Assembly: GCA_025353765.1 (NCBI GenBank)
Contig: JANXOD010000035.1
Span: 62,001 to 126,000 of the forward strand
Direction: 5' to 3'
DNA: 64,000 nt
Source: Sphingobacteriales bacterium
Lineage (GTDB): Bacteria > Bacteroidota > Bacteroidia > Sphingobacteriales > Sphingobacteriaceae
This document shows positions 2-45,470 of the stretch, piece by piece. The notes below the pieces were generated by a model. That model was not told the DNA's origin and ran no database searches. It saw nothing but the letters and a program-made list of their open reading frames with translations. The first letter of the stretch is position 1. Each line of letters opens with the position of its first letter. The position numbers were made by a program, and so were the translations under genes.

Positions 2-1252
2 GCAAAAGGATTGAAAGTTAGCCAATACGGTACTGGATCTCACACCAATGAAAATGTAGTTATCCAAATTGACCCTTCGATGAATAACTATATAAATGAG
101 ATATATTCTGCTGTTACACATTGGAATAACGTTCTTGATTGTAGTTTAGATTTTAGTGTATACTCTCCTGGGCAAACTACTCCACCAAATATAATAATCA
201 CTAATGCCAATTTGGGTTCAGGTGTCTGTGGTCAGTCATATTTCCCTGTTAATAATAAGCCTGGTAGTTTGATTCGAATAAATATTAATGAAATCTCCGG
301 CCTTCCTTTTGAACAAAGGCAACGTACAATCACTCATGAACTTGGACATGCCATAGGACTTAGGCACACTAACTGGCAGGGACATGAGGCCACCACAGGA
401 AATGATCCTTCTAATGGAGCCTATTATGATGCGATTCATATTCCCGGGACTCCAACAGGAATTGATGCCTCTTCATTAATGAATAGTGGAGAATGTGGAA
501 CTGGTGCTACGTACTTGTCTGATTATGATAAAATTGCAATTCGATCTCTTTATTTTCAACCAACTCCCAATTGGCAGCAATTAAGTGGAGGAGCAAGAGA
601 TATAAGTATAGGTGCAGATGGAAGTGTATTTATCATAGGAACGGATTATAATTATAATAATGGAGGTGCCAGAATATTTAAATGGGCGAATAATGACTGG
701 ACACCAATTGGTGGATATGCAATTGCTATAGCAGTAGCACCCAATGGAGTGCCATGGGTAGTCAATTCATTTGGATCAATTTTTAGAAGAGATGGCAATG
801 TTTGGACTCAAGTTCCTGGAGGGGCTAAAGATATTGGTATAGGCGCAGATGGAAGTATATTTATCATAGGAACGGATTATAATTATAATAATGGGGGTGC
901 CAGAATATTTAAATGGGCGAATAATGACTGGACACCAATTGGTGGATATGCAATTGCTATAGCAGTAGCACCCAATGGAGTGCCATGGATGGTTAATTCA
1001 TTTGGATCAATTTGTAGGAGAGATGGTAATGTCTGGACTCAACTCTTTGGTGGTGCCAAAGATATTGGTATAGGCGCAGATGGAAAGGTTTATATAATAG
1101 GAACAGATACTTTAAATGGAGGATATGGCACTTTTACTTGGACAGGCAACTCTTGGAACAAATTTAGTGGCGCAGGCATTAAAATAGCTGGGGATCTTAA
1201 TGGAAAACCATGGTTAATAAACTCCTATAATGTAATATTTAAATATTTTTAA
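2..1252 (+). CDS. Secreted HEIGH-type metalloprotease with tectonin-like repeats, 5' partial
   Basis: The reading frame is open at the left window edge, so the N-terminus (presumably a signal peptide) is missing; the TTG at 11 is probably internal. The first ~190 visible residues form a zinc-metalloprotease domain with the motif HELGHAIGLRH, which gives the three zinc-binding histidines and the catalytic Glu, followed by a Met-turn-like SLMN. This pattern and the surrounding sequence resemble peptidase family M57 (dual-action HEIGH peptidases) of Bacteroidota. From about residue 187 the protein consists of 77-residue units with the W-x-x-L-x-G-G-A and GADG-x-V/I-x-I-IGTD patterns of tectonin/TECPR beta-propeller blades, which usually bind glycans or proteins. 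Inference: an extracellular protease with a binding propeller. No T9SS sorting tail is visible at the C-terminus. Family assignment is good; the substrate is unknown. Confidence 0.85.
   Translation, partial: AKGLKVSQYGTGSHTNENVVIQIDPSMNNYINEIYSAVTHWNNVLDCSLDFSVYSPGQTTPPNIIITNANLGSGVCGQSYFPVNNKPGSLIRININEISGLPFEQRQRTITHELGHAIGLRHTNWQGHEATTGNDPSNGAYYDAIHIPGTPTGIDASSLMNSGECGTGATYLSDYDKIAIRSLYFQPTPNWQQLSGGARDISIGADGSVFIIGTDYNYNNGGARIFKWANNDWTPIGGYAIAIAVAPNGVPWVVNSFGSIFRRDGNVWTQVPGGAKDIGIGADGSIFIIGTDYNYNNGGARIFKWANNDWTPIGGYAIAIAVAPNGVPWMVNSFGSICRRDGNVWTQLFGGAKDIGIGADGKVYIIGTDTLNGGYGTFTWTGNSWNKFSGAGIKIAGDLNGKPWLINSYNVIFKYF
599..1252 (+). repeat. Three 231-bp in-frame tandem repeats (tectonin-like blades)
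   Basis: Units start at the GAT codon at 599, 830 and 1061, giving an exact 231-bp (77-codon) period. Units 1 and 2 are almost identical at the DNA level from about 607 to 790 versus 838 to 1021, including many synonymous positions, while unit 3 is clearly diverged after its first 40 bp. This indicates a recent duplication or gene conversion of one unit pair inside the propeller. Confidence 0.9.
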
Positions 1253-22833: not shown

Positions 22834-22980
22834 GTGGGAGTGATATTGCTGTTACCGGACATGCTGTTTGAATAAGTGGGAGTGCCATTTGAATAAGTGA
22901 GAACATCATTTAAAAAAGTGGGTATGCCATTGGAATATGTGGGAGTGATTTCTAAAAAAATGGGATGTAATAATACCGTA
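22834..22980. repeat. Degenerate tandem array with 21-bp period, array 1
   Basis: Seven consecutive 21-bp units start at 22834, 22855, 22876, 22897, 22918, 22939 and 22960. The consensus is about GTGGGAGTGCCATTTGAATAA; units 3-6 are the clearest, unit 2 and the last are weak. Just upstream is a small direct repeat TTGGTAAATA at 22804 and 22814. The array sits in the 546-bp gap 22690-23235 between the divergently oriented HTH_26 and XRE genes; the rest of that gap shows nothing definable. On the minus strand the array is translatable as heptapeptides of the type TYSNGIP within a 75-codon frame, but no credible gene is evident. Confidence 0.85.
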
Positions 22981-43207: not shown

Positions 43208-43690
43208 ATGAATTTCATTGGAAAGCGATCTTTAACTGCAGCTTTTTTAGTTATCACTGTTTTTTTTACTTCCTGTGAGGATACAAAAACCATTGTGGAT
43301 ACTAACCTGGAAATGAATAGCCATGATTGGAGTTATCTTAATAAGGTGCGCATCCCCGTAACTATTCAGAACGAAAGTATAGCCTATAATGTGTATGTGA
43401 ACTTGCGTCATACGGCGGATTATAAATATTCTAATATCTTTTTATTGATTGAAACTACCGGTCCCGATGGTAAAAAAACGACAGAACGTAAAGAGTTTAC
43501 TTTAGCTCAACCCGATGGGGAATGGTTGGGAAAAGGCTCCGGTAATATGTATAGCTATCAATTGCCTTATAAAATGGATTATCGCTTTGCTAAGAAAGGG
43601 AAATATACATTTCAGTTAGAGCAAAATATGCGTGATAACCCTTTACGTGAGATTACAGATGTTGGGATAAGGGTAGAGAAGGCGGAGTAA
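43208..43690 (+). CDS. gldH: Gliding motility lipoprotein GldH
   Basis: A 160-residue lipoprotein (signal ending VFFTSCED, Cys23) with the GldH pattern: DTNLEMNSHDWSYLNKVRIPV, YNVYVNLRHTADYKYSNIFL and the C-terminal LEQNMRDNPLREITDVGIRVE. GldH is needed for gliding and for stable GldK in the T9SS/gliding machinery of Flavobacterium, and also occurs in non-gliding Bacteroidota. The ATG directly follows the ricT stop codon. Its presence fits the T9SS cargo gene at 33.6 kb. Confidence 0.93.
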   Translation: MNFIGKRSLTAAFLVITVFFTSCEDTKTIVDTNLEMNSHDWSYLNKVRIPVTIQNESIAYNVYVNLRHTADYKYSNIFLLIETTGPDGKKTTERKEFTLAQPDGEWLGKGSGNMYSYQLPYKMDYRFAKKGKYTFQLEQNMRDNPLREITDVGIRVEKAE

Positions 43691-43755: not shown

Positions 43756-43964
43756 TCATTAAAACTATTTTCTAAGACCTCAAAATGATTTGCGGAGTCA
43801 TCAAAATGAATTTCTATGTCATTAAAACTATTTTCTAAGACATCAAATTGATTTTCGAGTTATCAAAATGACCTGCGAAGCCATCAAGTAAAACTTCTAT
43901 GTCATCAAAATGACTTGCGAAGACATCAAAATAAACTTCTATGTCATCAAAAGTATTTTTACCA
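43756..43964. repeat. Degenerate tandem array with 21-bp period, array 2
   Basis: Ten units start at 43756, 43777, 43798, 43819, 43840, 43860, 43881, 43902, 43923 and 43944; all are 21 bp except the fifth, which is 20 bp. Each contains a core close to ATCAAAA. Three unit types alternate: one ending CTTGCGAAG or similar, one ending ACTTCTATG, and one identical in units 1 and 4 (63 bp apart). It fills most of the 342-bp gap 43691-44032 between the convergent gldH and murF genes, which holds no gene. Stops interrupt the plus-strand frames. Confidence 0.85.
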
Positions 43965-44025
43965 CCTCTCCCGAAAATCGGGATTCCGCTTCGCTACACA
44001 ATCCACCTCCGCTGGTGGAGGTGGT
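43961..44025. repeat. REP-like double palindrome downstream of murF
   Basis: ACCACCTC (43961-43968) pairs with GAGGTGGT (44018-44025); inside lie TCCCGA-AAA-TCGGGA (43969-43983) and CCACCTCC-GCTGGT-GGAGGTGG (44003-44024). This GC-rich structure in an AT-rich gap resembles intergenic palindromic repeats of Bacteroidota, and may also end transcription of murF and gldH from both sides. Confidence 0.7.
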
Positions 44026-44032
44026 TAACCCG

Positions 44033-45343
44033 CTACATCAAAGGTATGAGTTCCTCCAACTTCATCCCACGAGAACCTTTAATAAGGATAGTCGCATTTA
44101 CAATCGGATTTTTCTTAAGAGCTTCAAATGCTTCATCTGTAGTTTTGTAGAATTCACTATTTCCGATACGCACTTTGTAGAATTCATCTCCAATAAAAAT
44201 CCGTCGCTCTGCATCTGTTGAATTTGCTTTTTGAATAATGGCTTGATGCTCTTTAGGAGCTTCATCGCCCAGTTCAAACATATCACCTAAAATGATGACT
44301 TTATGCGCAGCAGTGATTGCAGCCAGGTTATCTAATGCGACCATCATACTGCTTGGGTTCGCGTTATAATAATCGCAAATAAGGGTATTGGTAGCCGTTT
44401 TAGATAGTTGTGACCGGTTGTTTATGGGATTATAACAACTTATACCGGCATTAATTTCATCGGACCTAAGATTAAAGAAACAAGCAATACAAATAGCAGC
44501 AAGAATGTTTTCGAAATTGTAATTTCCGGTTAAGTTTGATTTAGCCAGGTGCTCCACATCATCCATTTCCATGGCTTCGCGTTCCCATTTTACGGTCAGA
44601 AAAGGATCAGAGCTCAGGAGTTCTCCATTGGTAAAACTGTCGGTCCCGGTTCCGTAATACACTACCCGGTCCAGGTTTTTCAGCCGCATCATTTCTATGA
44701 GTTCATGGTTATTACGATTGATGAAGGCAATACCATTTGTATCTTTTAAAAAGGAATACAATTCGCCTTTGGCAATTTTAACACCATCAAATCCGCCAAA
44801 ACCTTCTAAATGTGCTTTACCAACATTGGTAATCAGGCCATGTGTGGGTTGTGCAAGGCTGCATAAAAACTCAATTTCCTTTTGGTGATTCGCACCCATC
44901 TCAATAATGGCTATTTCAATATCACTGGTAATGGAAAGAATAGTTAAGGGAACACCAATGTGGTTATTCAAATTACCCTGGGTTGCATAGGTTTTATAAT
45001 GTTGCGATAAAACAGAATATAGCAATTCTTTGGTAGTCGTTTTTCCATTTGTCCCGGTAATACCTATAATTGGGATGGTTAATGCATCTCTATGAGACTT
45101 AGCCAGCTCCTGAAATGTGTTTAACACATCATCAACCAATATAAAACGGTCATCTGTATGATACTTGGCATTATCAATTATCGCGTAAGCAGCACCTTTT
45201 TCTAATGCAGTTTGTGCATAGCTATTACCGTCAAAGTTTTCACCTTTTAGGGCGAAGAACAAACAATCGGGTGTGATTTTACGCGTATCGGTACAAATTA
45301 CCGGGTGTTTTAAATATATCTGGTAAAGTTGATCTGTATTCAT
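44033..45343 (-). CDS. murF: UDP-N-acetylmuramoyl-tripeptide--D-alanyl-D-alanine ligase
   Basis: A 436-residue Mur ligase (start ATG at 45343, MNTDQLYQIYLKHP; a 14-codon longer frame begins at 45385). MurF adds D-Ala-D-Ala to UDP-MurNAc-tripeptide. It shows the N-terminal domain (DTRKITPDCLFFALKGENFDGN), the ATP-binding GITGTNGKTTTKEL (~94-107), the Mg-binding EMGANHQKEIEFL, and the C-terminal ligase domain with YNANPSSM. It stands apart from a mur cluster; downstream is the REP-like element and array 2, upstream it is divergent from the M14 gene. Confidence 0.95.
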   Translation of the reverse strand: MNTDQLYQIYLKHPVICTDTRKITPDCLFFALKGENFDGNSYAQTALEKGAAYAIIDNAKYHTDDRFILVDDVLNTFQELAKSHRDALTIPIIGITGTNGKTTTKELLYSVLSQHYKTYATQGNLNNHIGVPLTILSITSDIEIAIIEMGANHQKEIEFLCSLAQPTHGLITNVGKAHLEGFGGFDGVKIAKGELYSFLKDTNGIAFINRNNHELIEMMRLKNLDRVVYYGTGTDSFTNGELLSSDPFLTVKWEREAMEMDDVEHLAKSNLTGNYNFENILAAICIACFFNLRSDEINAGISCYNPINNRSQLSKTATNTLICDYYNANPSSMMVALDNLAAITAAHKVIILGDMFELGDEAPKEHQAIIQKANSTDAERRIFIGDEFYKVRIGNSEFYKTTDEAFEALKKNPIVNATILIKGSRGMKLEELIPLM

Positions 45344-45470
45344 TTTTACAATATTAAGATTTTTGCAGAATGCAAAGCTCAACATTTAAAGAGTTTTTAT
45401 AGAAAGGATATTCGTTTTATGTACTATATGTGATACTTGCGCTATTGATTATCATTTGTAAATTAGGAGC

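What the first reader, a model, noticed from the sequence alone, without database searches (positions are those of the whole stretch)
43756..43964. Second 21-bp-period array with alternating unit types (array 2)
Ten units (nine of 21 bp, one of 20 bp) lie between convergent gldH and murF. The sequence is unrelated to array 1 but the period is the same. Units fall into types that alternate, and units 1 and 4 are identical, giving a 63-bp higher-order repeat. One minus-strand frame gives heptads such as FASHFDD-IEVLLDG, while plus-strand frames contain stops. Two arrays of different sequence but equal period within 21 kb suggest a class of element in which the period rather than the sequence is selected or generated.
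Basis: partly seen in the sequence, partly recalled or inferred. Interest (0 to 1): 0.6.

Follow-up and report, generated by a model that had tools for sequence, protein, structure and literature searches.

The report
Genome-wide 21-bp intergenic repeat arrays
This short stretch of repeated DNA between two genes is one of dozens of non-coding arrays in the same bacterium that have different sequences but the same 21-letter repeat length; this looks like a largely undescribed, satellite-like kind of bacterial repeat whose cause is not yet known.

Summary
The array is real: nine 21-bp units plus one of 20 bp at 43757-43960, units 1 and 4 identical, alternating unit types, between convergent gldH and murF. 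It belongs to a genome-wide class. In 1.26 Mb of this genome I found about 30 arrays with periods of 21, 42 or 63 bp (four at 41/43). They fall into many unrelated sequence families, and all but one of those placed lie in intergenic DNA. Nine relatives (0.80 Mb, eight same-genus) have none, apart from 7-bp heptamer arrays in one; three more distant Bacteroidota genomes do. The orthologous gldH-murF gap in relatives has no array. Tests argue against coding (unit divergence shows no codon-phase structure), phased curvature, heptamer origin, a shared palindrome, and reverse transcription (no RVT_1 match). Two-copy 21-bp duplications are not in excess, so it is not a general 21-bp slippage bias. 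Families share units but not unit order. Best reading: satellite-like intergenic minisatellites whose period is inherited and kept by in-register duplication and loss, while sequence drifts. Function is undemonstrated. Closest known: the 23-nt BrickBuilt minisatellite/MITE of Porphyromonas gingivalis, but here the sequence varies and the period is constant.

The parts
43757..43960 (.). Array 2: ten units (nine of 21 bp including the partial last one, one of 20 bp), types x y z x x/y y z y z x
   Evidence: sequence, TRF, lag identities, wrap-around alignment 43759-43959
43841..43860 (.). The 20-bp unit; shifts the frame of the minus-strand heptad reading
43208..43690 (+). gldH, left neighbour (PF14109)
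44033..45385 (-). murF, right neighbour (Mur ligase domains)
43961..44025 (.). Adjacent 65-bp stretch starting ACCACCTC and ending GAGGTGGT; contains a dispersed 38-bp element (TTCCGCTTCGCTACACAATCCACCTCC...); hairpin-forming, separate from the array
   Evidence: sequence; further genomic matches, mostly 82-89% identical
22857..22965 (.). Array 1: same 21-bp period, unrelated sequence, between two minus-strand ORFs

Best explanation
Array 2 is one locus of a genome-wide set of families of non-coding intergenic minisatellites with a 21-bp period. Shown: the arrays are intergenic, sequence-diverse, share the period, and turn over in blocks of one, two or three units; related arrays share units but not unit order; the array is absent at the orthologous site in relatives. 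Inferred: a short seed is occasionally copied to a new intergenic site and amplified there by slippage or unequal recombination in multiples of 21 bp. In-register turnover keeps the period while the sequence drifts, as in eukaryotic satellite DNA. The period is inherited from ancestral arrays rather than re-created from random sequence. The arrays are most likely neutral or mildly selfish; a role at gene 3' ends is possible but not shown.
For: Confirmed array. About 30 arrays of 21/42/63 bp (four at 41/43) in 1.264 Mb, few other non-coding periods. 29 of 30 could be placed in a gap between called ORFs, although such gaps are about 11% of the sequence (ORF-based gene calls). Array families dispersed on several contigs. 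Every in-register offset between family members fits about equally well, so each array was amplified or homogenised after dispersal. Best lag is 21, 42 or 63 depending on the array. No array in relatives' gldH-murF gaps: about 17 bp in G028, a 62-66-codon gene there in G001, G006, G011, G017 and G007. No codon-phase structure against coding controls. No excess of two-copy 21-bp duplications. No RVT_1 match and a single cut-off-level Y1_Tnp match.
Against: Common ancestry between the sequence families is not detectable (own families P=0.065), so inheritance of the period is inference. Some families have 42/43-bp periods without 21-bp sub-structure. No close strain was available, so copy-number change was not observed. 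Neutrality was not tested directly; convergent gaps are somewhat over-represented (8 of 29 against 49 of 372, overall P=0.057).
Confidence: 0.5

Rival explanations
1. DNA-level functional platform: 21 bp is two helical turns, so any protein bound to successive units lies on one face of the DNA; arrays serve as sequence-agnostic nucleoid-protein or insulator sites, often at gene 3' ends.
For: Period 21/42/63 with almost no other value; near-exclusive intergenic position and mild excess in convergent gaps; same period class in other Bacteroidota.
Against: No 10.5-bp harmonic in A/T content; no shared motif or dyad; three-turn periods of 31-32 bp absent; indels at 5% of changes show no evident constraint.
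Confidence: 0.2
2. A molecular generator with a 21-bp step (a specific slippage, repair or templated-synthesis process) makes arrays from arbitrary sequence.
For: Unrelated sequences with one period in one genome, none in sampled relatives; a same-genus relative has 7-bp arrays instead, as if the period were genome-specific.
Against: No excess of nascent two-copy 21-bp duplications outside arrays; no RVT_1 match in this genome.
Confidence: 0.15
3. Decayed or live genes for heptad-repeat (coiled-coil-like) peptides; 21 bp is seven codons.
For: Many arrays have a frame that reads as heptads, e.g. EIDKLRA, FDDIEVY, IIKPNNG; short ORFs cover several arrays.
Against: Unit divergence has no codon-phase structure (combined P=0.44 over 20 array segments, against 0.019 for 10 control repeats); stops not rarer than column-shuffled controls; 20-, 41- and 43-bp units break frame; no significant Pfam family.
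Confidence: 0.07
4. Transcribed repeat RNA acting as a multi-site RNA platform or bidirectional 3'-end element.
For: Convergent position; BrickBuilt arrays in P. gingivalis are transcribed and contain promoters (PMC4596501).
Against: Array 2 folds no better than shuffles (z -1.3 and -0.1); no promoter- or terminator-like site; no Rfam match above threshold.
Confidence: 0.08

Closest known systems
BrickBuilt minisatellite/MITE of Porphyromonas gingivalis (PMC4596501)
   Same: Bacteroidota; imperfect tandem repeats of 20-odd bp, many loci per genome, intergenic, spurious ORFs, not translated as far as known
   Different: BrickBuilt has one 23-nt unit at all 19 loci, with leader/tail and IS5-type terminal inverted repeats in many copies; here units differ between arrays, the period is 21, and most arrays have no shared flanks
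Heptameric tandem repeats of bacteria (SPADE survey PMC6344855; TAACTGA repeats PMC4679880)
   Same: Intergenic, one period dominates, function unclear; present in same-genus G018
   Different: Period 7; no 7- or 14-bp sub-structure in the arrays here
Borg tandem repeats (PMC9879509)
   Same: Many unrelated units per genome, some of about 20 nt, some intergenic, nearly absent from the host genomes
   Different: Perfect units of varying length, about half in ORFs, A enrichment; here one fixed period, diverged units, intergenic
Eukaryotic satellite DNA (general knowledge)
   Same: Within-array homogenisation, higher-order units, sequence drift at constant period
   Different: Arrays here are only about 80-400 bp

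Membership tests
BrickBuilt-type minisatellite/MITE | Tandem repeat of about 23 nt shared by all loci | tested here: not met
   Units differ among at least 15 families; period 21
BrickBuilt-type minisatellite/MITE | Leader/tail with terminal inverted repeats | tested here: not met
   Flanks of most array pairs share nothing; a few exceptions; terminal inverted repeats themselves were not searched for
BrickBuilt-type minisatellite/MITE | Intergenic location | tested here: met
   29 of 30 placed in gaps between called ORFs
Minisatellite (VNTR) | Imperfect tandem repeats of 10-100 bp | tested here: met
Minisatellite (VNTR) | Copy-number variation between strains | not testable with these tools
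   no close strain held; same-genus relatives have GldH about 52-66% identical
Protein-coding heptad repeats | Codon-phase constraint on unit divergence | tested here: not met
   P=0.44 against controls 0.019
Phased A-tract curved DNA | 10.5-bp harmonic in A/T content | tested here: not met
   W power at 10.5 bp 0.06 against flat 0.10
Heptamer repeats | 7-bp sub-periodicity | tested here: not met
   lags 7 and 14 below expectation
REP/RAYT or RT-driven repeats | Cognate Y1 transposase or reverse transcriptase in the genome | tested here: not met
   no RVT_1 match; a single Y1_Tnp match at cut-off

The most novel reading that the evidence does not exclude
A class of bacterial DNA element whose conserved property is a 21-bp spacing and not a sequence: a protein or process reads or writes DNA in steps of two helical turns whatever the bases, producing dozens of unrelated arrays in some Bacteroidota genomes and none in their relatives.
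Probability: 0.25. Interest if true: 0.8.

Novelty: new variant of a known kind. Interest (0 to 1): 0.5.

Why it matters
Bacterial minisatellites are usually described by unit sequence. Here a single genome holds dozens of arrays that share only their period, while sampled relatives have none or a different period. That makes the question of what fixes repeat length in non-coding bacterial DNA testable. It also warns that short heptad ORFs annotated over such arrays are probably not genes.

Tried and rejected
Coding heptads: stop counts against column shuffles were uninformative, the codon-phase test was negative (control 40). Phased curvature: no 10.5-bp harmonic. Heptamer origin: none. Shared inverted repeats: isolated cases, combined signal weak (Fisher P=0.015, KS P=0.07), not a common feature. 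Detectable common ancestry of all families: not significant for own families; the all-pairs signal includes arrays chosen by the CATCAAAAT pattern. General 21-bp duplication bias: no excess. Whole-array block copying: no preferred offset. Decayed small gene seen after gldH in relatives: no homology. Mobile carriage on viruses: nearly all viral pattern hits lie in long ORFs, one non-coding exception.

Full report
Observation. The array is present as described. Reading, ten units run from 43757 to about 43960; nine are 21 bp (the last one partial), unit 5 is 20 bp, units 1 and 4 are identical, and three unit types alternate (x y z x x/y y z y z x). TRF finds it independently at periods 21, 42 and 63, and identity is 0.60, 0.63 and 0.55 at lags 21, 42 and 63 against about 0.27 at other lags. 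The neighbours are gldH and murF, convergent, confirmed by Pfam.

A genome-wide class. The window lies in a 2.83-Mb, 44-contig genome. I sampled 1.264 Mb of it (the window plus 60 stretches of 20 kb). A lag scan found 51 periodic regions; about 30 are non-coding arrays at 21, 42 or 63 bp, four of these at 41/43 bp. The other periods are few and several lie in open coding repeats. 29 of the 30 could be placed in gaps between called ORFs, while such gaps are about 11% of the sequence (ORF-based gene calls, and short ORFs made of array were set aside). One further 21-bp repeat lies inside a 422-codon ORF (L105:17112). Nine relatives, eight of the same genus and one of the same family, sampled for 0.80 Mb in all, show no comparable array; about 19 would be expected at the same density. 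One of them (G018) carries 7/14-bp heptamer arrays instead.

Other genomes. A pattern scan of species genomes for three CATCAAAAT words 21 bp apart found arrays in four Bacteroidota records, the other hits being mostly acidic coding repeats. Sampling three of those genomes away from the hit showed further 21/42-bp arrays of quite different sequence (L177, L180, L184, L188, L190, L193, L195). So the period class is not confined to this genome. The ascertainment by a 21-bp pattern does not explain arrays with other units on other contigs.

What the arrays are not. Coding: if seven codons were being conserved, unit divergence should be concentrated in one codon position. It is not (20 array segments, combined P=0.44), whereas repeats of other periods from the same genome, all open in one frame, do show it (10, P=0.019). 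Units of 20, 41 and 43 bp also break frame. The control is modest in power, so a few coding arrays cannot be excluded. Curvature: the 10.5-bp harmonic is not raised. Heptamer derivation: lags 7 and 14 are not raised. Shared dyad: some arrays contain palindromes but not as a rule. RNA structure: array 2 folds no better than shuffles on either strand, with no promoter- or terminator-like site and no Rfam match above threshold. Reverse transcription: no RVT_1 domain was found in this genome; RAYT-type transposase: only a cut-off-level match.

How they evolve. Arrays form families of two or three dispersed members, for example array 2 with L002 (79% identical, also between convergent genes) and, more loosely, the array at G000:C27:38987. 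Between family members every in-register offset fits about equally well, so unit order was not copied as a block, or has been homogenised since. The best lag is 21, 42 or 63 depending on the array, as expected if one, two or three units duplicate together. Indel events are 5% of changes, 19 of 54 of them in one low-complexity array. Two-copy 21-bp duplications outside arrays are not in excess (3 in 1.26 Mb, one of them part of the coding repeat in L105), so ordinary sequence does not keep throwing up 21-bp duplications. The orthologous gldH-murF gap in relatives is about 17 bp or holds a 60-66-codon membrane-protein gene, never an array, and no homology to that gene remains here. The array is therefore most simply a lineage-specific gain at this site.

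Mechanism. I favour a satellite-like model: seeds spread, are amplified locally in register, and drift in sequence while the period is inherited. Steps shown: non-coding, dispersed families, in-register turnover, absence in relatives. Steps inferred: slippage or unequal recombination as the engine, inheritance of the period across sequence families (not detectable by similarity, P=0.065), and neutrality. A generator with a 21-bp step, and a protein platform with two-turn spacing, remain open.

What is known. The nearest described element is BrickBuilt in Porphyromonas gingivalis (PMC4596501): intergenic, 23-nt repeats, 19 loci, but one unit sequence and MITE ends. That paper also mentions earlier reports of 41-, 23- and 22-nt repeats in that species. 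A survey of 7006 genomes reports heptamers as the commonest intergenic tandem repeat, of unknown function (PMC6344855). Borg elements have many unrelated units but varying lengths (PMC9879509). Nine literature searches found no description of a fixed 21-bp class; subscription journals are mostly not covered, so this is weak evidence of novelty.

Limits. Gene calls are ORF-based. The relatives' sample is 0.80 Mb over nine genomes.

Noticed in passing
L107:14324-14872, L110:7002-8078, L111:349-915 (G018, same genus): Heptamer (7/14-bp) tandem arrays in a relative that lacks 21-bp arrays, as if the period were a genome-specific trait.
   Followed up: partly
window 43984-44021: A dispersed element of about 38 bp (TTCCGCTTCGCTACACAATCCACCTCC...) next to array 2; a copy also lies beside the related array on C27.
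   Followed up: partly
L075:4845-5140, L156:14251-14446, L150:11015: A 43-bp array family with no 21-bp sub-structure, with an apparent single-duplication relative in L150.
   Followed up: no
L083, L153 and L072 array flanks: A stretch of about 190-230 bp, 75-81% identical, shared by the flanks of three arrays of different families.
   Followed up: no
L029, L038, L039, L042, L047 between gldH and murF; L028, L030, L031, L035, L052 just after gldH: A 60-66-codon gene for a likely membrane protein follows gldH in many relatives and is missing in the window genome, where the array lies.
   Followed up: partly
L214:8891-8937 (viral contig): A 21-bp array (GTCCATCAAAATGAGGGAGGT) in apparently non-coding DNA of a viral contig.
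   Followed up: no
window 586-1108: 231-bp repeats with codon-phase divergence in an open frame, most likely a genuine coding repeat.
   Followed up: partly
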